Source: a virus. From it: 33,484 nucleotides of DNA. Where the stretch lies: positions 1 to 33,484 of IMG/VR virus record IMGVR_UViG_3300021420_000094; one strand, 5' to 3'. Made by a program: the position numbers and the translations under genes. The first letter of the stretch is position 1. Each line of letters starts with the position of its first letter. The notes beneath the pieces are model-generated. The model ran no database searches, had not been told where the DNA came from, and worked only from the letters and a program-made list of their open reading frames with translations. This document shows positions 8,821 to 33,484 of this stretch, in pieces.

Positions 8821-8974
8821 GCATTGCGAGAATGTAAAGGCAGGATGGGTGCGCGAAGAAGATTTTGCTTCATTTCTTAGGCATGTAAGTACGTGCCAAG
8901 ATTGTCAACGCCGTATCAAAGCTCGATTTATTACAGAATTTAACCAGAGGAGAACGAATGGCGGTCATTGCTAA
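8813..8974 (+). CDS. 53-aa protein with HxxxxCxxC motif
   Basis: ATG at 8813 overlaps the terminase stop by eight bases. The product begins [20 protein letters not shown] and has [13 protein letters not shown] at residues 22-34, a pattern seen in anti-sigma zinc helices and small phage proteins. Its last 17 bases overlap the HNH gene. No strong ribosome site, so coupled translation is likely. Confidence 0.52.
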
Positions 8975-9434
8975 ACGAGATTATTGTCGCTATGGCCACG
9001 ACCGCCAAGTGGTTGGTATCACCAAGAGTAGCAACTGTAAAGCCTGTAATGAAGTTTATATGCGGCTCTATAAACAAACCCCAGATTATAAACGTTATAT
9101 TAGTTCTTATAATCGAGAATTTCGCAACTCAGAGTGGTATAAGAACTACCAAAAATCAACAGTTGTAAAAGATATCCAGAAACGATATAGACAGGAGCAT
9201 CCTGAACTAATGCGAATGTGGCATTCCGTATGTAAGAAGAATAGAAAACTACGAATACCAAAGTTCGGACAGGAAGGCATAGGTGACTTTTATAAGAACT
9301 GCCCAACTGGAATGGTCGTAGATCATGTCATACCGCTCCAAGGAAAGCTAGTGTCAGGCCTTCACGTCGTCTGGAATCTTCAATATCTTACGCCCGAGGA
9401 AAATATGAAAAAGGGAAACCGCTATGGCATCTAG
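8958..9434 (+). CDS. Free-standing HNH endonuclease
   Basis: 158 aa. GGAG seven bases before the ATG. An N-terminal Cys/His cluster (C-R-Y-G-H, then C-K-A-C) is typical of phage HNH proteins. The nuclease core is [17 protein letters not shown] at 120-136, with D122-H123 and H136, followed by W-N-L-Q and N149/N154 in E-E-N-M-K-K-G-N-R. Such enzymes cut one specific site and spread by homing, though some assist packaging when next to terminase genes. It overlaps both neighbours (17 and 11 bases), so it is well fitted into the operon. Confidence 0.9.
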
Positions 9435-11533: not shown

Positions 11534-11914
11534 ATGAGTTTAATAGCCGTTAATCAAGCCGTAATAAATTTCACAAATCAGACAACTACTTCTGGTGTTA
11601 TTTTAGACTTGAGCACTATTGATCTTATTTCTATTTCTGGAACATACGTTCCTGTGAGTAGTGGTACTGGTACTCTAGCGGTTTATGAATCAGTGGATGG
11701 TGTTAATTATGTAGCCGTCACTGGACTCACGGTAGCAATCAGTATGAGTGGTACGACCATTTGGCATATCAATCCGATCTTCAGCCGCTACTATAAGATT
11801 CTGTATACCGCGACAAGTAATGGTATGAATCTTACAGTTACCATCAACGCACGAAACAATGCCGATTACGATGATGTTACTATTCTTCCGCCGCCAGTTA
11901 TTGTAGCTTCCTAA
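11534..11914 (+). CDS. Small beta-sandwich virion protein
   Basis: 126 aa with GAGGAG nine bases upstream. Ser/Thr-rich, almost all strands. Y-E-S-V-D-G-V-N-Y-V-A-V and S-R-Y-Y-K-I-L-Y-T mark a sandwich domain found in phage head or fibre proteins. The S-x-D-G-x-N motif recurs in the products at 16021 and 16562, so these are probably paralogues. First gene of the cassette between portal and scaffold; decoration or fibre-attachment role inferred. Confidence 0.7.
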   Translation: MSLIAVNQAVINFTNQTTTSGVILDLSTIDLISISGTYVPVSSGTGTLAVYESVDGVNYVAVTGLTVAISMSGTTIWHINPIFSRYYKILYTATSNGMNLTVTINARNNADYDDVTILPPPVIVAS

Positions 11915-11926
11915 TAGGAAATATAC

Positions 11927-13489
11927 ATGTCTGATACAGATAAAAGTTTATATAGCCTACGCTATAATCAAGTCACGAGTAATCTAGAAGCTTTTGGGGG
12001 TGGTTCTCCCCAATGGACTCTCGTGGCATTAAATAATGTCGATCCCACGCAAGTTCCGGTGACTCGTCTTATTAATACTACGGCTCCTCTCCAAGGTGGC
12101 GGTAATCTAACAGCAGATCGTACTCTTTCGATTACGCAAGCAACAAATCTAAGTAATGGTTACCTATCTTCTGCTGACTGGATGACTTTTAATGCGAAAC
12201 TAACATCAGTGCTACCTTCCGCCAATATTTTTATAGGAAGCGGTTCCAACGTAGCAACTGCGCAGCCTATATCTGGCGATGTTACACTCTCAAACACTGG
12301 AGTAGTTACATTACAAACAGTTAATGCAAATGTGGGTTCTTTTACTAATGCAAATATTACTGTGGATGCAAAAGGCCGTATTACGGCAGCAGCAAGTAAT
12401 ACAAATGATTTGACGCAACTTACGGGAGATGTAACAGCTGGGCCGGGAGGTGGTTCCCAAGTCGCCACTCTTGCCACAGTCAATAGTAATGTTGGTTCCT
12501 TTACAAACTCTACCATCACTGTAAATGCGAAAGGGCTTATTACCGCAGCTTCTTCTGGTACCGCTCCGGTTACAAGTGTAAGTGGAACAGCAGGTGATAT
12601 TAGTTCCACAGGTGGTACAACGCCTATAATTGATTTAGTTAATACTGCTGTCACACCGGGCAGTTATACTTACACAAGTCTGACAGTTGATGCCAAAGGC
12701 CGTTTAACAGGCGCTTCCTCTGGTACTGCTCCTGTCACGAGTGTATCAGGCACAGCCGGAGACATCAGCTCTACAGGTGGCACTACACCTGTTATTGATC
12801 TAGTAAATACGGCAGTTACTCCCGGTTCTTATACTAACACGAATTTAACAGTTGATGCTAAAGGAAGAATTACAACGGCTTCCAACGGTACAGCAGTTAC
12901 GAGTGTCAGTGGTACTGCCAATCAAATTACTTCCACAGGTGGAAATACACCTGTTATTGCTATAGCCAATCCAGTTACTTTCCCCGGTGCAATGACCGCT
13001 GGTGGAACATTGTCGATGGCTTCTAATAAGATCACCAATCTAACGAATGGAACTGCCGCGACAGATGCACAAGCTTTTGGTCAGAATAAAGTATTTCAAT
13101 TTGTTCAAGGTACTACCACATCTACAAATAGCAGTACCTCTGCTAGTTTTGTAACGGCGGGTACAGGTGGTACTACTCTTTCTGCCACGATTACCACCAC
13201 AAATAGTCATCGGGTACGAATCACATCTTCGTTTACTATTAGAGGTTCTACTGCTACCACCGTCCGTGTTACGTATGCTATTTTTAATGGCACAACTCAA
13301 ATTGCTCAACTAGGCGAAGTACAAACTACGAATACGTCTGAAATGAATATAGCTGTAGATTATATAGATAGTCCGGCAACAGGTAGTACTACATATGCAA
13401 TTCAATTAGCGAACCAAAGTGGTGCGAACGGGTATGATTTTAACGTTGGTACTTTCGTTCAAACTATTGTTCTAGCGGAGATTGTGTAA
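11927..13489 (+). CDS. Tail or head fibre protein with tandem repeats
   Basis: 520 aa. Residues 50-320 consist of fibre repeats built on S-F-T-N-x-x-I-T-V-D-A-K-G-R-I-T-A-A-S, T-G-D-V-T and a 55-residue unit present twice (about 210-264 and 265-319). Repeats of this kind form beta-rich trimeric shafts. Residues about 362-390 hold M-A-S-N-K-I-T-N-L-T-N-G-T-A-A-T-D-A-Q, the usual lead-in to a C-terminal globular domain. The C-terminal 130 residues resemble the end of the second fibre (23053-24240); both finish in A-E-I-V or A-E-E-I-V. Probable host-receptor or surface fibre. Confidence 0.82.
   Translation: MSDTDKSLYSLRYNQVTSNLEAFGGGSPQWTLVALNNVDPTQVPVTRLINTTAPLQGGGNLTADRTLSITQATNLSNGYLSSADWMTFNAKLTSVLPSANIFIGSGSNVATAQPISGDVTLSNTGVVTLQTVNANVGSFTNANITVDAKGRITAAASNTNDLTQLTGDVTAGPGGGSQVATLATVNSNVGSFTNSTITVNAKGLITAASSGTAPVTSVSGTAGDISSTGGTTPIIDLVNTAVTPGSYTYTSLTVDAKGRLTGASSGTAPVTSVSGTAGDISSTGGTTPVIDLVNTAVTPGSYTNTNLTVDAKGRITTASNGTAVTSVSGTANQITSTGGNTPVIAIANPVTFPGAMTAGGTLSMASNKITNLTNGTAATDAQAFGQNKVFQFVQGTTTSTNSSTSASFVTAGTGGTTLSATITTTNSHRVRITSSFTIRGSTATTVRVTYAIFNGTTQIAQLGEVQTTNTSEMNIAVDYIDSPATGSTTYAIQLANQSGANGYDFNVGTFVQTIVLAEIV
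12551..12880 (+). repeat. Two 165-base in-gene repeats
   Basis: Two adjacent units in the fibre gene encode almost the same 55 residues (S-G-T-A-P-V-T-S-V-S-G-T-A-G-D-I-S and so on), but differ at many third codon positions. Similarity is strong at protein level and much weaker at DNA level. Confidence 0.75.
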
Positions 13490-13653
13490 TGGCAAATCCC
13501 ACGCATGATCAGGTTTTAAATACACTACGCACTAATTATCCCACGGCCCAATGGAATTTTGGTTTTCCTGATTTAAATACTGTATTGTATTCAAATTTTA
13601 TTTGGTTTGATGATCCTGCTACTAAGCCAAGTGCCGCTGATTTAGGATTCTAA
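13489..13653 (+). CDS. 54-aa fibre-associated small protein
   Basis: TAATG overlap with the fibre stop. The product begins MANPTHDQVLNTLRTNYPTA and has Q-W-N-F-G-F-P-D-L-N and F-I-W-F-D-D-P-A-T-K-P-S. No recognised family. Its coupling to the fibre gene suggests a small fibre chaperone or attachment piece (inference). Confidence 0.6.
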   Translation: MANPTHDQVLNTLRTNYPTAQWNFGFPDLNTVLYSNFIWFDDPATKPSAADLGF

Positions 13654-13670
13654 CTAAAGGAGTTTAGCTG

Positions 13671-14324
13671 ATGGCTGGCCCTGTCCCCACATATTCAACT
13701 ACACAGACAGCAGCACAAACAGCCTTTACCGTTCCATTTGGACTTTTAGCTTTAGTTAATGGTGCTATAGCTACTGCTACAGCGGCGGGAGAGTTTAATA
13801 CCACTGTAGATTGTTCATTATTCACAGCCGTAGATACTTCCAATCTTAGGATATATCTAGACAGTTTAGGATATCTTGTAGAATTTGCAGAAAATACAAG
13901 TGAACATGGCCTATTAATAGATTGGGGAAAGCCCGAAGCAAATAGTGGCACAACCACCGTAGTTACTCAAGGAACAAGCCCTTGGATAGTAGCAGAAGTC
14001 CCCAATCCAAATGGCGTAAGTTTATTTGCATCTAGTGATACAGTACCGAATGGCGTAGAAACAACAATTTTATCTTATACGGTACCTGTATCTTCGTTTC
14101 ATATCAGTCAGGTTATAGGTTGGGGAACATATGACGGAGAGTTTCTTGTTCGTAAGAATGGTACCATCGTTAGCGGCGGAAGAACTTCAGCGGCAACCCG
14201 TACTTTAAATATTTTATATGGAGATGCCCAAATTCCTGCTACAACTGGTGATATCATCACAGTGACAATATTAGAGTATGGTCCCGGAATGCAACAATTT
14301 CGTGTTCATCTCTTGGGAGAATAA
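13671..14324 (+). CDS. Virion protein of the cassette (QGTSPW type)
   Basis: 217 aa with GGAG nine bases upstream. Contains V-V-T-Q-G-T-S-P-W-I-V-A near residue 100, a short motif I have seen in many phage structural proteins, and a second beta-rich half with S-Y-T-V-P-V-S-S-F-H-I-S-Q-V and E-F-L-V-R-K-N-G. Probably a two-domain surface protein. No enzymatic residues visible. Confidence 0.65.
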   Translation: MAGPVPTYSTTQTAAQTAFTVPFGLLALVNGAIATATAAGEFNTTVDCSLFTAVDTSNLRIYLDSLGYLVEFAENTSEHGLLIDWGKPEANSGTTTVVTQGTSPWIVAEVPNPNGVSLFASSDTVPNGVETTILSYTVPVSSFHISQVIGWGTYDGEFLVRKNGTIVSGGRTSAATRTLNILYGDAQIPATTGDIITVTILEYGPGMQQFRVHLLGE

Positions 14325-14519
14325 ATGTCCGACAATGACCCAAATAAGAAACTTAATGCAAAACGGTTAGAGATTGAGGCATTCGGACTTCAGCTCAATC
14401 TTAAACGTCTTGAACTTCGTGTGATGGAAATAGAAGAGGAGAAAATAAAGATAGCAGAAAATGTAGAGGCATCTAATAAACGGATAGGGGAAATCCAAAA
14501 AGTCTTAATGGAGAGCTAA
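14325..14519 (+). CDS. 64-aa coiled-coil protein
   Basis: Starts directly after the previous TAA, with GGAG seven bases upstream. Almost entirely one charged helix with heptad-like Leu/Ile spacing (L-Q-L-N-L-K-R-L-E-L-R-V-M-E-I-E-E). A small oligomerising protein, possibly a fibre or head chaperone. No family recognised. Confidence 0.62.
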   Translation: MSDNDPNKKLNAKRLEIEAFGLQLNLKRLELRVMEIEEEKIKIAENVEASNKRIGEIQKVLMES

Positions 14520-14520
14520 A

Positions 14521-15267
14521 ATGGCAGATTTCGACGCGCAGTTACCGGTACGAGCATTAGCCACAGAATTCACTACAGAAGTAGCTAATTCTATTGGCGC
14601 AACGATCAATCCAGCAGAAGATTGGGCTCAGGGAAGCACCACCTCTGGTCAGAATGGTGTATTAGATCAGGGTGCGGTAACAACCGCTGCCCCGACTTAT
14701 ACTACAGGTACTACTAATCCGCTTTCCCTCACGACCGTAGGAAATCTTCGTGTGGATGGCTCTAGTGTTACACAGCCTGTCTCTGGTACTGTCACAGCCA
14801 ACCAAGGTACTCCGAATGCTACGCCTTGGAATGAGAATATTGCTCAGTATGGTGGAACTGCAACTTCATTAGGACAGAAAGTTTCTGCCTCTTCTGTTCC
14901 TGTTGTTATAGCCTCCGATCAATCTGCTGTTCCTGTTACATTCGCTTCACCAACATCTGTTTTAACATATTTCACAGATGCTGCTGTGGCAAGTGGTGCC
15001 ACTACTACTCATTCTGTGGCTGGCCCTATTAACTTGGACAAGGTATCCGCTTCTGGTTCTGGTGAAATTAAATTGACAGTTGCTATTGGAACAACTGGGA
15101 GCGAAGTCACTTATTGGAATAGCTTCACTAGTGCTTCCGATCAAAACACTCAGATGGATTTTGAAGGACGCGCTTATATTATTCCTTCTGGTCAATCTGT
15201 GAAAGTTACACTTAAAAACCGCGATACAGCGGCGCAGGACTTATACGTTACATTCTTCACGCATTAA
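14521..15267 (+). CDS. Virion protein with PVVIASDQS motif
   Basis: 248 aa. Near residues 125-140 it has S-S-V-P-V-V-I-A-S-D-Q-S-A-V-P-V, a motif widespread in phage structural proteins, preceded by L-G-Q-K-V. The C-terminal 110 residues form a beta domain (G-E-I-K-L-T-V-A-I-G, Y-I-I-P-S-G-Q-S-V-K-V-T-L). Another surface or decoration candidate. One base separates it from the gene before it. Confidence 0.65.
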   Translation: MADFDAQLPVRALATEFTTEVANSIGATINPAEDWAQGSTTSGQNGVLDQGAVTTAAPTYTTGTTNPLSLTTVGNLRVDGSSVTQPVSGTVTANQGTPNATPWNENIAQYGGTATSLGQKVSASSVPVVIASDQSAVPVTFASPTSVLTYFTDAAVASGATTTHSVAGPINLDKVSASGSGEIKLTVAIGTTGSEVTYWNSFTSASDQNTQMDFEGRAYIIPSGQSVKVTLKNRDTAAQDLYVTFFTH

Positions 15268-15279
15268 TCGGGGGAGTAG

Positions 15280-16020
15280 ATGGCTGATCTGCCAATAACA
15301 TCGGATGAAGGAGCTACACCTGTAGTTATAAATGATCCTGTTACAATAGCAAATGTAGCGGGAGTAAACTCATCCAGTGCTCTAAAAACAGATCGGACGA
15401 CTGTAGCAGGTGTGGCTGTTGCCACAGCAGCGGCGGGAATACAGAAGATTGGTGTAACGGACGGTTCGGGGACGGCTGTCACTTCCACAACGCTAGGCGC
15501 AAAGCAAGGATTGGACGTAACTGCCATTGCCTCACCAAGCCAAGTGGCTGCGGCCCTAGGGCAAGTGTACGTTACGTCATTTGAGGTCAATCTTCCAACG
15601 AATGGCATTGAGTCCCCGGCGGTCTATATCAAGAACCCTAGTGGCTCTGGCAAGACGTTGATATTAAAGATAGTATCCGCCTCCTGCGAAGATGCGACAA
15701 ATGGAGCTGGAGTCATTCGAGTATACGGTGATCCAACGACATCTGGCAATGGAACGTCAGAAACGATCTCCTCTACAAGTGTAGGTGGTGGAGCAGCCAG
15801 TTCTGTCATGACCGCCTTTTCTGGCCCAACGGCCTCTGCGAACGGGTCTATTCTATTCGCTATAAATACAGGATCGGGGAATGTGACTACTGCTGGAAGT
15901 ATGCCGCTACATTTAGATGGGCTTATAAGAATATCAGCAAACCACGCTCTATTAATTACTGGCGAACCTTCAACTAATAACATGAATTATTCTTTTACTG
16001 TTATATGGCAGGAAGTTTAA
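15280..16020 (+). CDS. Beta-rich virion protein
   Basis: 246 aa, GGGGGAG upstream. The N-terminal Ala/Thr/Val part (T-I-A-N-V-A-G-V, T-D-G-S-G-T-A-V-T-S) resembles that of the preceding gene. The C-terminal jelly-roll-like part has L-I-L-K-I-V-S-A-S-C-E and the end Y-S-F-T-V-I-W-Q-E-V. Probably a paralogue or partner of its neighbour. No other function can be stated. Confidence 0.62.
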   Translation: MADLPITSDEGATPVVINDPVTIANVAGVNSSSALKTDRTTVAGVAVATAAAGIQKIGVTDGSGTAVTSTTLGAKQGLDVTAIASPSQVAAALGQVYVTSFEVNLPTNGIESPAVYIKNPSGSGKTLILKIVSASCEDATNGAGVIRVYGDPTTSGNGTSETISSTSVGGGAASSVMTAFSGPTASANGSILFAINTGSGNVTTAGSMPLHLDGLIRISANHALLITGEPSTNNMNYSFTVIWQEV

Positions 16021-16560
16021 ATGCGAATTGTAAATATTCCCTACTCTCAGTGGAAAAGTATTCTCGCTTCTAATGATCTAAATGCTCAGTATCTTGAAAA
16101 TCCTGATAGTTATGATATTTTTGCTATTGAATATCACATCTCATGGGAAACAAGAGTTCTAAAAGATGGCGGTAGTAATCAAACTGATTTTGAAACTAAT
16201 TACAAACCTACAGCCAATCAACCGCTAGGAGCAAGACAAACAGATACAAGTTCTACTGCAAATACATTTACATCTACAGGAACCGGAACGGCTTTAACTA
16301 CACCGCTTTCGTTCGATCAATACGCTTTACAAATACAAGTGACTGGTACCGCTACTACTACCTTATGGAATGTCGTTCTGGAGGCAAGTTTAGACGGTGT
16401 TAACTTCTCTACAATTCTTACTTCGACGCATTTACTTGGTCAGGGTGTTATATGGGGAAGTACTTTAACTGCTCCATCTATCTATATTCGTTCTAGGGTT
16501 ATTGCATTAGCTTTGGGTTCTGCAACAAATATTATAGTAACAATTTTAGGCCAAACCTAA
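16021..16560 (+). CDS. Virion protein with SxDGxN beta-sandwich
   Basis: 179 aa, starting directly after the previous stop. N-terminal M-R-I-V-N-I-P-Y-S-Q-W-K, a middle linker rich in Thr/Ser, then E-A-S-L-D-G-V-N-F-S-T-I and Y-I-R-S-R-V-I-A-L at the C-terminus. The sandwich motif is shared with the genes at 11534 and 16562. No strong ribosome site, so coupled translation is likely. Confidence 0.62.
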   Translation: MRIVNIPYSQWKSILASNDLNAQYLENPDSYDIFAIEYHISWETRVLKDGGSNQTDFETNYKPTANQPLGARQTDTSSTANTFTSTGTGTALTTPLSFDQYALQIQVTGTATTTLWNVVLEASLDGVNFSTILTSTHLLGQGVIWGSTLTAPSIYIRSRVIALALGSATNIIVTILGQT

Positions 16561-16561
16561 T

Positions 16562-17419
16562 ATGGCTATACAACAGAATATAGTATCTTATAATAACTCA
16601 AGTACGATCCCCCTCGCGGCGAATGCTACATTCACTGGAGTATTTGAGAATGTTCTTCAGTATCAAGAACTTAGCTGTTTTTGTACATCAGATGTGGGCG
16701 GCACACTCTATTTAGACTTTAGTGTAGATGGTCTTAATGTCTTATCGTCTTTCCCATTTACCTCAACTGGTAGTACATTTTTTCGCACACCAAGCAGTCA
16801 GGCATATGCACGAGTGCGATATATCAATGGTGCCACACTCCAAACACAGTTTTCTTTAACTACAATTTATCGTCCCGTCGCTGGTGGTGCCGCACAGGTT
16901 CCATTCTCTAATCCAGTTTTCGATGTGTCATTGGCACAAAATGAAAGGGCCATTCTTTACGGGAAAAATGCAGGTGGAACATATGTGCAGATACCTGCCG
17001 ATACCGATACTGGCCTACGGGTAACAAGTTCATTGGGTACAACACTCGGTAAGACCAATGTTTTAAAAACAGGAACGCTAACTACTACTTCAGTAACGGT
17101 AGATCAAGTCGTATTGACCTATACTGTTACAGCAGGAAAAATCTTCTATGTACAATATATAGAGATGAACGGAATTCAAACAACTCCGGCCGGGGGATCA
17201 GCAGTAAATTTAGGCATTATAAGCCTTGAAATCCCTTCGGGAACAAAAGTAATAGCAAAACGTTGTGTAGGAGCGGCAGCAATTGATCCTGTGGGTCTTT
17301 TAATCCCTTTTTTAGAACCAATCCCCGTTGCGGCTGGTACAACTATACGGGTTGTTGTAACGCCAGCCACAACTAGTAGTTTTACATGGGCCGCAAATTT
17401 TGGAGGGTATGAAAAATAG
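16562..17419 (+). CDS. Two-domain virion protein with SxDGxN sandwich
   Basis: 285 aa. The first domain (to about 115) has D-F-S-V-D-G-L-N-V-L-S-S and A-Y-A-R-V-R-Y-I-N-G-A-T, matching the sandwich type of 11534 and 16021. The second domain begins near 160 (L-G-K-T-N-V-L-K-T-G-T-L) and has F-Y-V-Q-Y-I-E-M-N-G-I and T-T-I-R-V-V-V-T-P-A. It looks like a fusion of an anchor domain and an outer domain. Role inferred from context. Confidence 0.62.
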   Translation: MAIQQNIVSYNNSSTIPLAANATFTGVFENVLQYQELSCFCTSDVGGTLYLDFSVDGLNVLSSFPFTSTGSTFFRTPSSQAYARVRYINGATLQTQFSLTTIYRPVAGGAAQVPFSNPVFDVSLAQNERAILYGKNAGGTYVQIPADTDTGLRVTSSLGTTLGKTNVLKTGTLTTTSVTVDQVVLTYTVTAGKIFYVQYIEMNGIQTTPAGGSAVNLGIISLEIPSGTKVIAKRCVGAAAIDPVGLLIPFLEPIPVAAGTTIRVVVTPATTSSFTWAANFGGYEK

Positions 17420-17421
17420 TT

Positions 17422-17919
17422 ATGTTAAGCGGATACTATTCAGCCCCCATTAAAATTCGCCAGTCGGCTTCCACAGGTAGTGGAGCTACTGTTTGGTCTA
17501 TGCGTAATTCTGCATCATCAACTGTAACAGTTTTTATAGAAAGGATTGAACTTTTGCTCGCGTTTGACTCAGGAACACCGCTGACGCGCAGCCTTCAACT
17601 ATATGATCTTGTTAGATTTTCAACCGCAACACCCACAGGTGGAACAACCGTATCAGTGGCCCAGATGTATAGTGGAGATACTGGAACACAAGTGTCTGAT
17701 GTGAGATTTCTTGACACGGGTCTAACAACTACTGGTGCAGTATTCAATCCCCCGTTTTGTACTATTGGTTGTCCCGCCACGGATGCTACTACTACAAAAT
17801 ATCAACGTGATACAATAGCGTTAATATTAGGAATTGGCGAAGGATTTTGTATAAAACTCAATGGAGCAGCAGTAATTGGTCAGAGTTTGACAGGTGAAAT
17901 TGTTTGGAGTGAACGATAA
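17422..17919 (+). CDS. 165-aa beta-rich virion protein
   Basis: The N-terminal part reads Y-S-A-P-I-K-I-R-Q-S-A-S-T-G-S-G. Then come F-I-E-R-I-E-L-L-L-A-F-D-S-G-T-P and L-Q-L-Y-D-L-V-R-F-S-T-A-T-P-T-G-G-T, a pattern that recurs in structural proteins of unrelated phages. Three Cys (two in F-C-T-I-G-C) are unusual in this cassette. TAATG overlap with the next small gene. Confidence 0.62.
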   Translation: MLSGYYSAPIKIRQSASTGSGATVWSMRNSASSTVTVFIERIELLLAFDSGTPLTRSLQLYDLVRFSTATPTGGTTVSVAQMYSGDTGTQVSDVRFLDTGLTTTGAVFNPPFCTIGCPATDATTTKYQRDTIALILGIGEGFCIKLNGAAVIGQSLTGEIVWSER

Positions 17920-20461: not shown

Positions 20462-21748
20462 ATGAGTGATGTAGATTTATCAGCCCTTAACGGGGACTTC
20501 AAACAGGCATATCAGGACAAGATCAAAGACTTAGTTCCTAACTATGCGTATGTTCTTAAAAATACGACCGTAGAAAAAGGAATGAAGCAGCTCGGAGACA
20601 AGTTCAACGCGCCCGTCAAAGTGCAAAGCGGCCAAGGCTATACGTACAATACGGATGGCTCCGCTTTCGCGCTCAATGCGGCTATTGGACTCCAGATGGA
20701 AAATGCGCTTGTTCCGGCATTCTCTCTCATCCGCCGGGACAACATCAGCTATACGGCTATCAGCCGTTCTGCTGGTAAGAACAGCTTCGGAAAGGCCGTT
20801 GACATTACCCTCAACGACATGACCGAAGGTGCGGGGTTCCGCCTAGAAGCTACGTATCTTCATGGTACGCAAGGCATCGGGCAGACCTCCTCAACCACCA
20901 TGGTTAGCTCCACCCAAACCACGGTGCAACTCACTGCCGCGACATGGGCGACTGGTATTTGGGCTTCTTCAATCGGAGCACAGGTGCAGTTCTATGTTAT
21001 CGCTGGTGGCGCGTTGGTTTCTTCAGGCGCGGATTCTGTGTTCCAAGTTGTGGGAATGAACTTCACTGCCTTCACAATCACTGTGAATGGTACCACGACT
21101 GGTAGCACGGCTCTCGTTGCTGCTTCTGGAACGCCTCTGAATGTTGCCTTTAATGGCGCGTTCGGATCGACGTTTGCTCTCCCCATCGAAGGCGTTGGCT
21201 TAATGGCTATCGCTTCTAACGTTGGGACGCTGTTTAGCATCAATTCTCAGACGTGGCCGCTGTGGCAGGGAAATACGTACGACGCTGGTGCGGCTCCTCT
21301 GACCTTCGGTAAACTTCAGAAAGCCATCACACTGCCCGGCGATAAGGGCTTGATGGGAGAAGAGTGCACGGTTCTCGTGCCTTTGACCTCATTCAGCGAC
21401 TTACTCACCGAACAGGCGGCTGCTCGCCGATACGGCGACGTGAAAGGGAAAAAGTTCGACAACGGCTGCGATGCGTTGGAGTTCTATTCTCCGGCTGGCA
21501 CAATGACCATCGTTCCCCATCCTTTGGTGAAACGCGGTCAGGCGTTGCTGTATCCGACAGATAGCATCACCCGCATTGGTTCTAGCGAGTTGACGTTCCA
21601 GCTCCCCGGCACCTCGACGGACAGCTATCTTCAGGTTCCTCTCGGAGACTTTGCTGGCTACCAAGTTCGTATTTGGGCTGACAATACCATCTTCGCGGAA
21701 ACCCCGTCGCATATGTGCTACATCACGAACATCGTTCCGCGAAGCTAG
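20462..21748 (+). CDS. Major capsid protein
   Basis: 428 aa, directly after the scaffold module, with AAAGGAT about eight bases upstream. Helical N-terminus (F-K-Q-A-Y-Q-D-K-I-K-D-L-V-P), then a long region G-K-A-V-D-I-T-L-N-D-M-T-E-G-A-G-F-R. The centre (about 150-265) is Ser/Thr/Ala-rich, an inserted surface domain, and is followed by the core elements M-G-E-E-C-T-V-L-V-P-L and L-Q-V-P-L-G-D-F-A-G-Y-Q-V-R. Probably HK97 fold of the P22 or similar type. G+C is clearly higher than in its neighbours: 34 of 60 bases at 21421-21480, against 23 of 60 at 17041-17100. This suits a highly expressed gene or a different origin. Confidence 0.85.
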   Translation: MSDVDLSALNGDFKQAYQDKIKDLVPNYAYVLKNTTVEKGMKQLGDKFNAPVKVQSGQGYTYNTDGSAFALNAAIGLQMENALVPAFSLIRRDNISYTAISRSAGKNSFGKAVDITLNDMTEGAGFRLEATYLHGTQGIGQTSSTTMVSSTQTTVQLTAATWATGIWASSIGAQVQFYVIAGGALVSSGADSVFQVVGMNFTAFTITVNGTTTGSTALVAASGTPLNVAFNGAFGSTFALPIEGVGLMAIASNVGTLFSINSQTWPLWQGNTYDAGAAPLTFGKLQKAITLPGDKGLMGEECTVLVPLTSFSDLLTEQAAARRYGDVKGKKFDNGCDALEFYSPAGTMTIVPHPLVKRGQALLYPTDSITRIGSSELTFQLPGTSTDSYLQVPLGDFAGYQVRIWADNTIFAETPSHMCYITNIVPRS

Positions 21749-21750
21749 AA

Positions 21751-22161
21751 ATGAATACGTGTTGTCGTTGTGATAAAGTTCACTCCTACTCTCAAAAGTA
21801 TTATTGTCGAGAGTGCTGGGGAAAGTTGAATAAAAAATATCGAATTCGTTGGAATAGCGAAAATCCTGGTAGAGAAAAACTTCGCCATAGGAAAAACGCT
21901 TTGAAAACAAACTTCGGTATGACTCTTGAAGATTACAACACGCTATTCACTAGGCAGGATGGTAGATGCGCTATTTGTGGTAAGCATCAGTCAGACTTTA
22001 CAAAAGCTCTCCATATAGATCATGACCACAAGACCGGCAGTATACGCGGTCTTTTGTGCAATGAATGCAATCATGGGGTCGGCAATTTTAAAGATGACCA
22101 AACTTTACTACAGAGAGCGATTATTTACTTATCTAAATTCGCATTAGTTCCACGGTCGTAA
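21751..22161 (+). CDS. Endonuclease VII-type HNH nuclease
   Basis: 136 aa from the ATG two bases after the capsid stop; a frame from 21715 lies within the capsid gene. N-terminal Cys cluster C-C-R-C...C-R-E-C. Core: M-T-L-E-D-Y-N-T-L-F (57-66), zinc pairs C73/C76 and C103/C106, and the active site H-I-D-H-D-H (88-93) before G-S-I-R-G-L-L-C-N-E-C-N. This is the T4 endonuclease VII family, which includes junction resolvases and many mobile homing-type nucleases. Here the absence of a ribosome site, the sharp G+C drop (25 of 60 at 21841-21900) and the place beside the capsid gene favour a mobile gene. It ends in V-P-R-S, as does the capsid protein. Confidence 0.9.
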   Translation: MNTCCRCDKVHSYSQKYYCRECWGKLNKKYRIRWNSENPGREKLRHRKNALKTNFGMTLEDYNTLFTRQDGRCAICGKHQSDFTKALHIDHDHKTGSIRGLLCNECNHGVGNFKDDQTLLQRAIIYLSKFALVPRS

Positions 22162-28674: not shown

Positions 28675-30765
28675 TTGCCTTTTGTAAGCAACATGCCTGA
28701 GGAAGAGAAACAAGACCCCACTGCGGCCCCTCAAGGGGCTGTTCCACCTGTTGGTGGAGCTGGGGCAGTACGTCTATCCCCCTCTGCGGGAGTGGCATCA
28801 CTTGGTGGGGCTGCTCCATCGGGCGGCACTACAGGTGGCACTGCTGCTGGTGCGCCTCCTCCTACTGCTGGTGGCCAGTTTGGCTCCCTTAACCAATATC
28901 TTACGGCAAATCAAGGCCAAGCAGCCCCTCTAGCTCAAAAGGTTACAACAGGCATCAACAATCAATATAATAATCTCAACACGCAAGGAAATGCGGCACT
29001 TGGCGCGATTAATAATCAAATCGCTGCTGGAGCCGCACCAAATGCCACTGATGCTAATTCTATTATCGCTCAAGAAACAGCCAATCCCTCATCTTTTACA
29101 AGCACACCCGCTAATGTAACCTCTTTTCAAAATCTACTTAATGCATCTTATGGTGGCCCCACTTCCGCCGAAAGCACAAATACCTATCAGAATCAGCAAA
29201 ATGCCGTAAATAGCGCGATATCTGCCGGGCAAAATGCAGTTGGTACGGAAGCTGGCCGAGAGAATCTTCTATCACAAAATGAAACTGCCCCAACAACAGG
29301 TGTTACTGCTCTTAATAGTGCGATTTTATCTCAAGACCCCAATGCTCTGGGTTCTATAGAAAATGCTTATGCGCCTTTTAGTGGCCTTTTAAATAATTTA
29401 CAAACAGGTGCAGGAACGGCCAACACACAAATTGCACAAGAACAAGGCCAAGCTGCTCAAGCTCAACAAGCTTCTAATCAGGCTATAAATAATCAGATTA
29501 ATACATTAAATACAGGTGTAACTGGTGAACTTACAGCAGCTCAACAAGCAGCTACAACCCAGAATGCCCAGATCAAATCAGATTTAGCTGCTGGTACCCC
29601 TACTCCTGCTGATCTACAAGCTCTTGGTATGACTCCCACGCAATGGAGTTCTTTGTCAGCAGCCGATAAAGCAGCAGCTACGGCTCAGGTTGTTACGGCT
29701 GGCGGCGGTGGTGAAGCCACTGCCAGTAGTGGCACCACTACTATTGATCCTACACAGTTTTTAACGCAACAAAATCCTAATAATGCTATCACTGCTGCCA
29801 ATATTGCCACTCCCCAAGATTATGCAAATGCACAAGCATTTCAAACTTTGCTTCAAGGTATGAATACACAAGCACCAGCTACTATAATAAATCCTACCAC
29901 AGTTTCACAGGCTGGAACGGCTCCAACTAACTTAAATCAGTATAACTATCAAACAGCCCTGAATACCGCTACATCAACGAAAGCGGATGAAGTAGCTGCT
30001 GCTCAAGCTTATGTGAATGCGATACAAAGTGGTATGGACGAAAACCACGCACAACAAGTAGCGGCGGATGCTGCAAAAACTGCACAATATGAAAATAATG
30101 CTGCTGCGGCCAGTACCATAGTCGGTGCACCAACAGCGGCTCTCGCAGCCAGCGGTGTAGGTGGTGATGTCGGAAAATATGCAAATCTTATATCGCAAAC
30201 CATTGGAGCCCCTGTTCGGCAAATTGAAACGGGTGCAGTTAAACAAGGTGTCTTGGGGCAAGGAAGTGGCACCGCTGGCGGAGCGGCCAAGAGTACAGCG
30301 GCCCAATCTGCTGTTAATATGGCGGGTCTTGGAATTCCGCAAGCCGCAAATGCTATCGTAAATGCCGTAAAATGTTTCGTTAAAGATACTCTGATTGAAA
30401 TGCAAGATGGAACAGAAAAAGCCATACAGGATATAAAAATCGGAGATGAGACGCGAGGCGGAAAAGTAACCTTAACTATAGCGGGAGAAAGCAATGATCT
30501 ATATGAGTACAAAGGAATCGTAGTCGTAGGGGGACATTCTATACTGCCATCCTACACTTTTGTACGTGATGTCGGTAGAAAAATAGAGCCGACAAAAGAA
30601 CTTCCTGTTTATTGTATTTGTACTACAGAACATTCAATCTGGATAAAAGGTATTGGTTTCTCAGATGCAGTTAGTATGGCATGGTTTGATTTATATTATT
30701 TAAAAAATGAACAAAACGAAGCGCGAGAACTACTACAAGAAATAATTGGGGCACGACATGATTAA
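28675..30765 (+). CDS. Ejection-type protein with C-terminal Hint domain
   Basis: 696 aa. TTG start with AGGG seven bases upstream; the ATG at 28693 is the alternative. Residues 1-70 are Gly/Pro/Ala-rich, and 75-560 are Ala/Gln/Asn/Thr low-complexity helix, as in internal or ejected virion proteins. At C567 a Hint domain begins: C-F-V-K-D-T-L-I-E-M-Q-D-G-T, A-I-Q-D-I-K-I-G-D, V-V-G-G-H-S-I (H621), V-R-D-V-G, and C-T-T-E-H-S-I (block B, H653). The terminal His-Asn of splicing inteins is absent and the chain ends at 696. Self-cleavage before C567 is possible; splicing is not expected. Its partners are the two following proteins. Confidence 0.75.
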   Translation: MPFVSNMPEEEKQDPTAAPQGAVPPVGGAGAVRLSPSAGVASLGGAAPSGGTTGGTAAGAPPPTAGGQFGSLNQYLTANQGQAAPLAQKVTTGINNQYNNLNTQGNAALGAINNQIAAGAAPNATDANSIIAQETANPSSFTSTPANVTSFQNLLNASYGGPTSAESTNTYQNQQNAVNSAISAGQNAVGTEAGRENLLSQNETAPTTGVTALNSAILSQDPNALGSIENAYAPFSGLLNNLQTGAGTANTQIAQEQGQAAQAQQASNQAINNQINTLNTGVTGELTAAQQAATTQNAQIKSDLAAGTPTPADLQALGMTPTQWSSLSAADKAAATAQVVTAGGGGEATASSGTTTIDPTQFLTQQNPNNAITAANIATPQDYANAQAFQTLLQGMNTQAPATIINPTTVSQAGTAPTNLNQYNYQTALNTATSTKADEVAAAQAYVNAIQSGMDENHAQQVAADAAKTAQYENNAAAASTIVGAPTAALAASGVGGDVGKYANLISQTIGAPVRQIETGAVKQGVLGQGSGTAGGAAKSTAAQSAVNMAGLGIPQAANAIVNAVKCFVKDTLIEMQDGTEKAIQDIKIGDETRGGKVTLTIAGESNDLYEYKGIVVVGGHSILPSYTFVRDVGRKIEPTKELPVYCICTTEHSIWIKGIGFSDAVSMAWFDLYYLKNEQNEARELLQEIIGARHD

Positions 30766-30979
30766 TATCCCTAGACTTTTGCCACTTGTGCGAAAGGAAT
30801 TTCCAAAGGCACCGCTTTCTCAGATTCTTAAAGCGATGAATGATTTTGCTCAAGCGCATCCAAATCTTACAGATGAACAGGCAGTGCAAGCATTTCAACT
30901 AGCGATGCAAAGCGCAAAACAACAAAAACAACAGCAACCTCCATTTCAAAATCTAATTAACCAAATAGGGAGCCGCTAA
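30758..30979 (+). CDS. 73-aa Gln-rich helical protein
   Basis: ATG at 30758 overlaps the previous stop by eight bases, with GGGG eight bases upstream. The product begins MINIPRLLPLVRKEFPKAPL, has A-H-P-N-L-T-D-E-Q-A-V-Q-A-F-Q-L-A-M-Q, and ends with a Gln-rich stretch. A small helical partner of the ejection-type proteins around it. No family recognised. Confidence 0.62.
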   Translation: MINIPRLLPLVRKEFPKAPLSQILKAMNDFAQAHPNLTDEQAVQAFQLAMQSAKQQKQQQPPFQNLINQIGSR

Positions 30980-30980
30980 T

Positions 30981-32270
30981 ATGGCCGGATTATTCGATTC
31001 TTCTGATACCGAAGCACAAAATTATTTACAACAAGCACTCCAGGCCTATCAAACGGCTCCTGTTCCTACCATCGCTTCTGAAACTGTTGGTCAACTCCCG
31101 ATGGAAACAGTACAGGGAGCCGTCAATCCTGCTGCTATTCAAGTCGCTACACAAGCTCCTTCTGCCTTCAATAATATATCGCTTGATCCGGCTACAAGAG
31201 CCGCCCAAATGCAAGCCCTTCAGCAATATCAACAGATTGCTAATACACCCGGTTTAGACCCGGCTTCTAAATTAGCCCTACAGCAAGTTATAGATGCGGC
31301 AAATGTTCAATCACAAGGAGCGCAAGGAGCTATTCAGCAACAGGCGCAAGCAGAAGGCCAAGGCGGCGGAGATTTTGCCCTTACACAACGGGCTTTAGCC
31401 GCGCAAGGCGCATCTAATACTGCTGCGACACAAGGAATGCAAGCGGCAGCAATGGCCGAAGCAAATCGACAGGCTGCTTTAGGAAATATGGCTAGTATCG
31501 GTGCCACACTTAATGCTTCTGATTACGCACAGGCAGCTAATAAAGCAACGGCCCAAAATACTATAAATGCTACGAATCAAGCAGCTACAAACACAGCTAA
31601 TACTGGAAATGTAGCAAACACTATACAAACAGGGGAGTTTAATACAAACACTGCCCAAGGCGTGAACGCTGCTAATACAGCAGCAGGTCAAAATCAGGCG
31701 TATTATAATGCCGCATTGCCCCAACAACAATTCAATAATCAATTACAGAAAGCTAGCGGGATTGCAGGTGTTAGCGGTGCACAAGCAGCACTTGCACAAA
31801 CAGCTCAAGGCCAACAAAATGCAATGACGGGTTCTCTCTTAGGAGCGGCTGGTACTATTGGCGGCGCGGCTTTAGGGGGGCCAGCAGGAGCGGCTATTGG
31901 TAGTCAAGTTGCAAAACAAGTAGCTCCTTCTAATAATGCTTCGGCTGGAGAGGCAAATGTGGCACATGGCGGCGCAATCGGCTATAGTAAAGGTGGCTAT
32001 TCTTGCTATGCTGAAGGTGGAATAGCACATGATCACGCTATTTGTGCAAAATTAGGTATGCTAGTGCCCGGAAAAGCGAAAGTGGATGGCGATAGCGAAA
32101 CCAATGATACTGTACCAGCTATGTTAAGCCCCGGCGAGTTAGTTATCCCCCGATCAGTGCCCAAAGACGGAGCGAGTATGGAAGAATTTGCTCGTAATGC
32201 ACCCGTACCCGGTACAGGCAAGAAAGTTGATTTAACATCATTTACTGCAAAATACAAGAGGCCACGCTAA
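30981..32270 (+). CDS. Ejection-type protein with [12 protein letters not shown] motif
   Basis: 429 aa. Residues 1-285 are Ala/Gln/Asn-rich helix. Near 290-315 lies a glycine-zipper-like hydrophobic segment ([20 protein letters not shown]), which could enter membranes. Then [39 protein letters not shown], and V-I-P-R-S. The last motif is widespread in phage tail-end or ejected proteins. Its likely job is to help make the DNA channel through the cell envelope. TAATG overlap with the next gene. Confidence 0.72.
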
Positions 32271-33484
32271 TGCCCTTAAAACCCGGCACTTCAAAAGAGA
32301 CAATCAGTCATAATATTTCCGAGATGGTTAAGTCTGGTCATCCACATGACCAAGCTGTTGCTGCTGCCTTGCATAATGCTCATCCGAATGGTGGAAAGAA
32401 TATGGCCGATGGCGGAATGAGTACAGATGACCTACGAAAGTCTGACACTGGCGTTCAAGATGCCACTGTTTCTGATTTTTTAGCTCCTTATCTTCTTGGC
32501 CCTGTGGCTGGTAAAATAGGCGAAGGATTGGCTCCCGCTCTAGAGGGCTTAGGCGAAACAGGTGCAGTTACTCTGGGTAAGAATGCCCCTAAGATGGAAG
32601 AAGCTCTTGAACCCGGTGCATCTAAATTAGAAGCCTATATTCAAGGAATTCAGAAAGGCGCAAAAGGAACACCTGATGTTGAAATTTGGAATGTTAAAGG
32701 TGATCCCGACGAGATTGCTAAACTAGGTTTTGGCCCAAATCCCGGCTCCGTTCCAAAAAATGTTTTACAAGCAAAAGGGATTTTGCCACCACAAGTAGCT
32801 GTACCGGGACAGATGGCTCCCAATCCTTATGCAAAAGGTGGATTAGTCAAATCATTAGAAGCTGTTCATAATATGCCAAGTAATACAACGCCCACACCAT
32901 TTGCAAAGGGTGGCAAAGTAGAACGTTCTTCCTTAGCTTATCCAGAACCAAACGGCATGATGGCTAGAGCTATGTGTATGGGCGGATATTCTGAAGGTGG
33001 CTATCCGCATGTTACGTTCTTAGAAAATGAAAGTCCAGCAACAGTGAATAAAGTGACTCATGTAGAACATGCACCATCAACACCTGCTACTTCCACCGAA
33101 ACTGGAGAAAAAGATAATCCTAAACATATGGCAAAGGGTGGCGCGGTAGAACATGCGCCCGGCGGGGATGTTCATGTCAATAGAGAATCACATATGTCTG
33201 TACCTATAGTGTCTAAAGATACAGAGTTCCATCTAAAACGTACGCCCCAAGAAATGGCTAAGGATGATGTTGGCGATACCGTTAAAGTGGCCCTTCCGGC
33301 CACGGTTACATCCAAAGAAGGCGATATGGAACGCGTAAAGACTCATGGCGATGCAGAAGTGCAAAAAACGGGGCAACCATCCATGCCAATTATGATGAAT
33401 GAGGGCGGAAAAACTCCTCACTTCTTGGAAGGTTTGAAAAAAGGAGCTTTGCACAAAGAAATGGGTATCTCCGAGGATAAGAAA
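32270..33484 (+). CDS. Large virion protein with repeated KGG motifs, 3' end cut by window
   Basis: Open for 405 codons from the ATG at 32270 to the window edge, with no stop. N-terminus: [17 protein letters not shown], then [10 protein letters not shown], a short helical module found at the start or end of many phage proteins. The rest is mainly disordered, with repeated Gly-Gly elements: M-A-D-G-G, Y-A-K-G-G, F-A-K-G-G, Y-S-E-G-G, M-A-K-G-G and M-N-E-G-G. Near the edge is [15 protein letters not shown], another recurrent phage module. Internal or ejected protein by context. Confidence 0.65.

What the first reader, a model, noticed from the sequence alone, without database searches (positions are those of the whole stretch)
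28675..30765. Ejection-type protein ending in a Hint (intein/hedgehog-type) domain
The low-complexity virion protein suddenly becomes an ordered domain at C567, with block A (C-F-V-K-D-T-L, D-G-T, I-K-I-G-D) and a block B-like T-T-E-H (H653). There is no terminal His-Asn, so splicing is unlikely. An N-S acyl shift at C567 could release the N-terminal 566 residues or attach them to a nucleophile, as hedgehog proteins do. Self-processing during virion maturation or ejection would be an unusual role. Hint domains are known in phage proteins; their function there is, as far as I know, unsettled.
Basis: partly seen in the sequence, partly recalled or inferred. Interest (0 to 1): 0.75.

Follow-up and report, generated by a model that had tools for sequence, protein, structure and literature searches.

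The report
Optional Hint module on phage proteins
A phage protein of the tail/ejection region ends in a small self-processing (intein/hedgehog-type) domain from a widespread family seen here only in uncultured phages; it comes and goes between near relatives and is often encoded with an overlapping acetyltransferase gene, so it is probably an optional chemical tool of the virus whose target is unknown.

Summary
Residues 567-664 of the 696-aa protein (window 28675-30765) form a genuine Hint domain. The window sequence alone gives only sub-threshold Pfam hits, but a profile of 34 diverse relatives matches solved inteins (E=3e-6), and the top 36 PDB hits of the AlphaFold model are all Hint structures. 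C567, T572, GG595-596, V598, H621 and D664 are invariant in 34/34. There is no terminal His-Asn and no nucleophile after the domain, and no C-intein was found, so splicing is very unlikely. What remains is thioester chemistry at C567.

New facts: the domain (209 IMG/VR stretches) ends at least 16 unrelated phage proteins, including lambda gpI; it is under purifying selection (median dN/dS 0.14); it is dispensable (of three ~50-kb relatives, one has Hint, GNAT acetyltransferase and a 73-aa gene, two lack all three); in 13 cases a GNAT gene overlaps the 3' end of the Hint gene, and others carry SET or hydroxylase genes.

The window copy lacks the GNAT and has V618 where relatives have S/T/A. Self-cleavage and presence in virions are inferred, not shown.

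The parts
28675..30765 (+). Hint-bearing protein of the tail/ejection region, 696 aa, TTG start
   Evidence: homologues with (L140) and without (L141, L142) the Hint
28675..30372 (+). Carrier: residues 1-566, low-complexity A/Q/N/G-rich; homologous to the Hint-less 450-456 aa proteins of L141 and L142, mainly over its first ~280 residues
30373..30666 (+). Compact Hint domain, residues C567-D664 (98 aa)
30373..30459 (+). Block A: C567 (putative nucleophile), T572, G579, K582, I584
   Evidence: invariant or nearly so in 34 relatives; matches PI-SceI block A
30457..30468 (+). G595-G596-x-V598, invariant in the family
30526..30537 (+). Block B: V618-G-G-H621; H621 invariant, V618 unusual (S/T/A in relatives)
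30604..30666 (+). Block-F-like last hairpin (V644-Y...D664), ending in invariant D664; includes the non-conserved H653
30667..30762 (+). C-terminal tail, 32 aa, unlike the tails of GNAT-coupled relatives
30758..30979 (+). 73-aa gene overlapping the Hint gene; present in L140, absent from L141 and L142
24240..28235 (+). Tail-tube A-like and B-like genes upstream (context); labels inferred from gene order, size and a PHROG match of the equivalent gene in L040 to structural/tail proteins
30981..32270 (+). Low-complexity protein downstream, conserved in L140-L142 and in Silvanigrella phage W8red (context)

Best explanation
The C-terminal 98 residues belong to a compact, apparently phage-specific Hint family that works like the hedgehog and BIL class of autoprocessing domains rather than like a splicing intein. 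Proposed steps: the domain folds; H621 with T572 and possibly D664 promotes an N-S acyl shift at K566-C567, giving a thioester; water or a small nucleophile resolves it, so the 566-residue carrier is separated from the Hint. Splicing cannot follow because there is no terminal Asn and no C-extein. The module is an accessory added to various tail or virion proteins, and in many podovirus-like relatives it is made together with a GNAT acetyltransferase that probably modifies the Hint protein or its acceptor. Shown: homology, predicted fold, invariant residues, purifying selection, modularity, presence/absence, GNAT linkage. Inferred: that it cleaves, when, and the role of the GNAT. The window copy may be less active (V618, no GNAT).
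For: C1, T6, H55 and D98 invariant in 34/34 relatives as little as 22% identical. Hint fold by profile and by model. Median dN/dS 0.138 over 607 non-independent pairs. No Asn, penultimate His or +1 nucleophile and no C-intein motif. Same domain on at least 16 unrelated carriers, one of them lambda gpI. Hint, GNAT and 73-aa gene present together in L140 and absent together from L141 and L142. GNAT genes overlap the Hint 3' end in 13 cases of two sequence families. BIL and hedgehog proteins are known to use the N-terminal reaction without splicing (PMC7664689).
Against: No biochemical or virion data. The window has Val at a position usually Ser/Thr and lacks the GNAT. A free-standing Hint in L002 has no large carrier to release. 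The catalytic role of D664 is inferred: the profile test of its equivalence to the intein Asn was inconclusive and model coordinates could not be measured. Two close relatives live without the module.
Confidence: 0.5

Rival explanations
1. Ligation rather than release: the C567 thioester is resolved by a specific nucleophile (an amine, lipid or sugar of the host envelope, or another virion protein), so the carrier's C-terminus becomes covalently attached to it, as in hedgehog.
For: Nearest structural relative is the BIL2 domain of the Tetrahymena BUBL locus, a locus I recall as linked to ubiquitin-like ligation (own knowledge). One carrier, lambda gpI, has a ubiquitin-like N-terminal domain and sits in the tail tip that opens at the host envelope. 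Coupled modifying enzymes could prepare or protect the acceptor.
Against: No acceptor is known and no sterol-recognition-like region is present; simple hydrolysis needs fewer assumptions.
Confidence: 0.2
2. Non-processing role: the Hint fold is kept as a structural or binding module, for example a docking site for the GNAT or for a tail component, without cleavage.
For: A free-standing Hint exists in L002; the window lacks the Ser/Thr of block B; some members end virion proteins with no other sign of processing.
Against: Invariance of exactly the catalytic-type residues C1, T6 and H55 in 34/34 is hard to explain for a mere binding domain.
Confidence: 0.17
3. Exchangeable accessory cassette (Hint plus GNAT plus small gene) acting against the host or rival phages, comparable to exchangeable C-terminal tips, rather than serving assembly.
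For: All-or-none presence between near relatives, two tandem Hint-GNAT pairs in L002 with a shared leader, many unrelated carriers.
Against: No toxin domain or immunity gene is recognisable; GNAT is not restricted to such systems; the Hint is the last domain, so nothing sizeable is released from its C-terminal side.
Confidence: 0.1
4. N-terminal half of a split intein that trans-splices with a C-intein encoded elsewhere.
For: The length from C567 to D664 (98 aa) resembles N-inteins; phage metagenomes are a known source of split inteins (own knowledge).
Against: The model has the complete fold with the final hairpin; no credible C-intein motif in the window, the L140 locus plus two further pieces of its genome, or other loci.
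Confidence: 0.03

Closest known systems
Bacterial intein-like (BIL) domains (C. thermocellum 2lwy; Tetrahymena BUBL BIL2 6y75/6tmm)
   Same: Best structural matches; Cys1, block-B His, no +1 nucleophile, N-terminal cleavage expected instead of efficient splicing (PMC7664689)
   Different: The BIL2 construct has a terminal Asn (entry title C1A-N143A) and is ~143 aa; this family has Asp at the end, is ~98 aa, and lies at the C-terminus of phage proteins
Hedgehog C-terminal autoprocessing domain (1at0)
   Same: Hint fold at the C-terminus of a carrier; only the N-S acyl shift can be used
   Different: No sterol-recognition region seen; Foldseek match weaker (E about 1e-2); acceptor unknown
Splicing inteins of phage enzymes (terminase, helicase, ribonucleotide reductase)
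   Same: Block A and fold; inteins are common in phages
   Different: No terminal Asn, no +1 nucleophile, C-terminal position, no homing endonuclease
Hint-annotated phage proteins in public sets (e.g. 'Hint' of Phage sp. ctKtV17, uncultured Caudovirales phage)
   Same: Hint fold in phage proteins of unknown function (BFVD hits)
   Different: Not shown to share the GGxV, D664 and GNAT-coupling features; only fold similarity was seen
Tail-spike intramolecular chaperone autocleavage domain (ICA)
   Same: C-terminal self-processing of phage tail proteins
   Different: Unrelated fold and different chemistry (own knowledge); no Cys1 thioester

Membership tests
Hint superfamily | Hint fold | tested here: met
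   Model and Foldseek
Hint superfamily | Block A beginning with Cys1 (or Ser) | tested here: met
   C567, 34/34
Hint superfamily | Block B TxxH | tested here: inconclusive
   His invariant; the T position is S/T in 28/34 relatives but Val in the window
Hint superfamily | Autocatalytic N-S acyl shift | not testable with these tools
   Needs biochemistry
Splicing intein | Terminal Asn/Gln, penultimate His | tested here: not met
   S663-D664; D in 34/34
Splicing intein | C/S/T as first residue after the domain | tested here: not met
   A665 in the window; F/Y/E/L/A/I in relatives
Split intein (N half) | C-intein partner elsewhere in the genome | tested here: not met
   No credible motif; genomes may be incomplete
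BIL domain (type A) | Terminal His-Asn without +1 nucleophile | tested here: not met
Hedgehog Hog domain | Sterol-recognition region after the Hint and sterol transfer | not tested
   Only a 32-aa tail follows; transfer needs biochemistry
Polymorphic-toxin PT-HINT | Hint followed by a toxin domain | tested here: not met
   Domain is C-terminal; 32-aa tail only
Ejection (internal virion) protein | Present in virions and ejected into the host | not testable with these tools
   Only gene order supports it; no useful PHROG match

The most novel reading that the evidence does not exclude
A phage-encoded protein-conjugation cassette: the Hint activates the C-terminus of a tail-tip or ejection protein as a thioester, and the co-translated GNAT-fold enzyme (replaced by a SET methyltransferase or an Asp/Asn hydroxylase in other phages) prepares or catalyses its transfer to an acceptor, a ubiquitin-like ligation that anchors the injection apparatus or tags a target.
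Probability: 0.07. Interest if true: 0.92.

Novelty: new variant of a known kind. Interest (0 to 1): 0.6.

Why it matters
Hint domains in phage structural proteins are annotated in public sets, but I found no tested function for them. The question becomes testable here. The family is defined (compact, C-terminal, invariant Asp, more than 200 stretches), there is a natural with/without comparison between near relatives, there is a candidate partner enzyme whose gene overlaps the Hint gene and is absent together with it, and in some members the carrier is a structurally understood protein, lambda gpI. If the domain cleaves or ligates, thioester chemistry would be part of phage assembly or entry, and the domain would be a very small self-processing unit of use as a tool.

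Tried and rejected
- Split-intein N half: no C-intein motif.
- 'Rz-like spanin' PHROG hit at residues 240-354: judged a low-complexity artefact.
- Single-sequence PDB search: only chance matches; the profile was needed.
- Named phages: only block A of true inteins and other Hints (Achromobacter phages JWF and 2-1, Roseobacter phage DSS3P8), none of this family.
- Bacterial/archaeal genomes: two scans, no member of this family, only other Hint/BIL proteins.
- GNAT as plain T7 gp13: not supported; the proteins match general GNAT Pfam families and the Hint-less relatives have no GNAT.
- Profile test that D664 occupies the intein terminal-Asn position: inconclusive; kept as inference.
- GNAT scan for Hint-free GNAT relatives: returned only the query's own set of contigs and L043's, so not independent evidence of coupling.
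- GNAT remnant in the window: none seen.
- Paper on polinton-like viruses that surfaced in a Hint search: its Hint terms were unrelated.

Full report
OBSERVATION. The ORF at 28675-30765 encodes 696 aa. It begins with TTG; relatives start with the same MPFV..M sequence. Residues 1-566 are rich in A, Q, N and G, and the composition changes at C567 (codon 30373). The window's last 138 residues alone give Hom_end_hint at E=5.6e-4 and Hint at 0.0097, both below Pfam cut-offs, and a single-sequence search of solved structures finds no Hint.

FAMILY. A first scan of 2.9 million IMG/VR contigs with the domain gave one relative of the same kind (L002) among four hits. An alignment with the two L002 copies gave 31 loci, and a wider alignment gave 209 confirmed stretches, of which 80 were kept. 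Thirty-four sequences below 85% identity to each other (22-36% to the window) were aligned with a 10-residue lead. Seven positions are invariant: C567, T572, G595, G596, V598, H621 and D664. Three before H621 stands Ser/Thr in 28, Ala in 5 and Val only in the window. Of the 34, 30 match Pfam Hom_end_hint and 14 match Hint. The profile matches PI-SceI at 3e-6, the NEQ068 intein around block B, and the Tetrahymena BIL. An AlphaFold model from this alignment has block-mean pLDDT 88-98 over the core. Its top 36 PDB hits are Hint domains: Tetrahymena BUBL BIL2 at 1.7e-5, Vint, C. thermocellum BIL, hedgehog, inteins. Profile-profile alignment with canonical Hints from related loci puts H621 on the TxxH His. 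Over 607 non-independent pairs of close relatives the median dN/dS is 0.138 and the maximum 0.254.

WHAT IT CANNOT DO. Canonical Hints found beside this family end ...VHN. The window family ends ...FSD, followed here by 32 residues and the stop. No Asn, no penultimate His and no C/S/T follow, and a motif scan for a C-intein found nothing credible in the window, in the L140 locus with two further pieces of that genome, or in other loci. That D664 occupies the place of the intein Asn is suggested by spacing (DGYLVHN against KGIGFSD); a profile test did not settle it and I could not measure coordinates.

MODULARITY. The N-terminal parts of the Hint proteins fall into at least 16 groups without detectable similarity to each other. 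One is lambda tail assembly protein I (phrog_32, E=5e-38), with gpJ (phrog_31) as the next gene in L059. In lambda, gpI forms a plug in the tail-tip lumen and is found in virions (PMC10721106); the plug opens on receptor binding (PMC11101478); its N-terminal domain is ubiquitin-like (PMC1779556). In other loci a canonical Hint ending VHN precedes this family in the same protein (L016, L083, L099).

PRESENCE AND ABSENCE. The window's tail-tube-B-like protein retrieves three ~50-kb phages of one metagenome at 77-79% identity. L140 has the same carrier with a Hint (683 aa), then an overlapping GNAT gene, then a homologue of the window's 73-aa gene, then the 30981 homologue. L141 and L142 have the same carrier without Hint (456 and 450 aa) and no GNAT or 73-aa gene; searches of the whole records confirm this. 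These records are not certified complete. The window has Hint and 73-aa gene but no GNAT and no visible GNAT remnant. The nearest named relative found, Silvanigrella phage W8red, shares TerL, portal, MCP, both tube proteins and the 30981 protein but has no Hint in its partial record.

PARTNER GENES. Every hit of the GNAT profile A6 in the loci starts (stop-to-stop frame) 10-43 bases before the end of the Hint frame, in 9 distinct contigs, and all nine query members match GNAT Pfam families. A second set follows the Hint in four more cases (L025, L055, L046, first copy of L002). The predicted structure of the L025 protein (mean pLDDT 71) finds GNAT acetyltransferases, several of them N-alpha-protein acetyltransferases. 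L083 and L102 have a SET-domain gene and L048 an Asp/Asn beta-hydroxylase gene overlapping the Hint end. Many marine members have unknown or ordinary neighbours, so the partnership is common, not universal. L002 carries two Hint-GNAT pairs in tandem; the second Hint is free-standing but keeps the short leader found before the first, as if an older cassette had been displaced.

INTERPRETATION. The anatomy permits one classical Hint reaction, an N-S acyl shift at C567 followed by hydrolysis or transfer. Conservation and purifying selection argue that family members are active; there is no direct evidence. Optional presence means that cleavage is not a general requirement for these virions: relatives simply encode the carrier without it. 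I therefore favour an accessory autoprocessing module, with the GNAT acting on the Hint protein or its acceptor, and rate this mechanism 0.5. Ligation, a non-processing binding domain and a cargo cassette are the rivals. The window's copy may be a degenerate or partner-independent variant.

KNOWN OR NEW. Hint proteins in phages are annotated in public sets, and inteins in phage enzymes are well known. I found no paper describing a C-terminal Hint module on phage structural proteins or its linkage to acetyltransferases in the open-access library searched; most subscription papers are not covered. I class it as a new variant of a known kind.

Noticed in passing
window 8958-9434 and 21715-22161: Two free-standing endonuclease VII/HNH-type genes inserted among structural genes: after TerL (phrog_1035, 1e-13) and after the MCP (phrog_2914, 2e-32); likely homing-type insertions.
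   Followed up: no
window 31980-32200 and 32270-33484: Low-complexity proteins with repeated Gly-rich stretches and a '[24 protein letters not shown]' motif, also conserved in L140-L142; function not followed.
   Followed up: partly
L002:4616-6863: Two tandem Hint-GNAT pairs, the second Hint free-standing with a copy of the leader ('IAQERAA'); looks like a displaced older cassette.
   Followed up: partly
L083:1436-1912, L102:1490-1966, L048:8416-9087: Instead of GNAT, a SET-domain gene or an Asp/Asn beta-hydroxylase gene overlaps the end of the Hint gene.
   Followed up: partly
L036 (Achromobacter phage JWF, KP202971.1 29502-33023): A tail-region protein with another kind of Hint, with a radical SAM gene annotated as sulfatase-maturating two genes downstream; again a Hint near a modifying enzyme.
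   Followed up: no
L116:7467-9266: Four tandem canonical Hints (each ending VHN) in one reading frame of a contig binned as Nanoarchaeota.
   Followed up: no
window 11534-17919: A run of small, apparently beta-rich proteins of unknown function between portal and scaffold-like genes.
   Followed up: no
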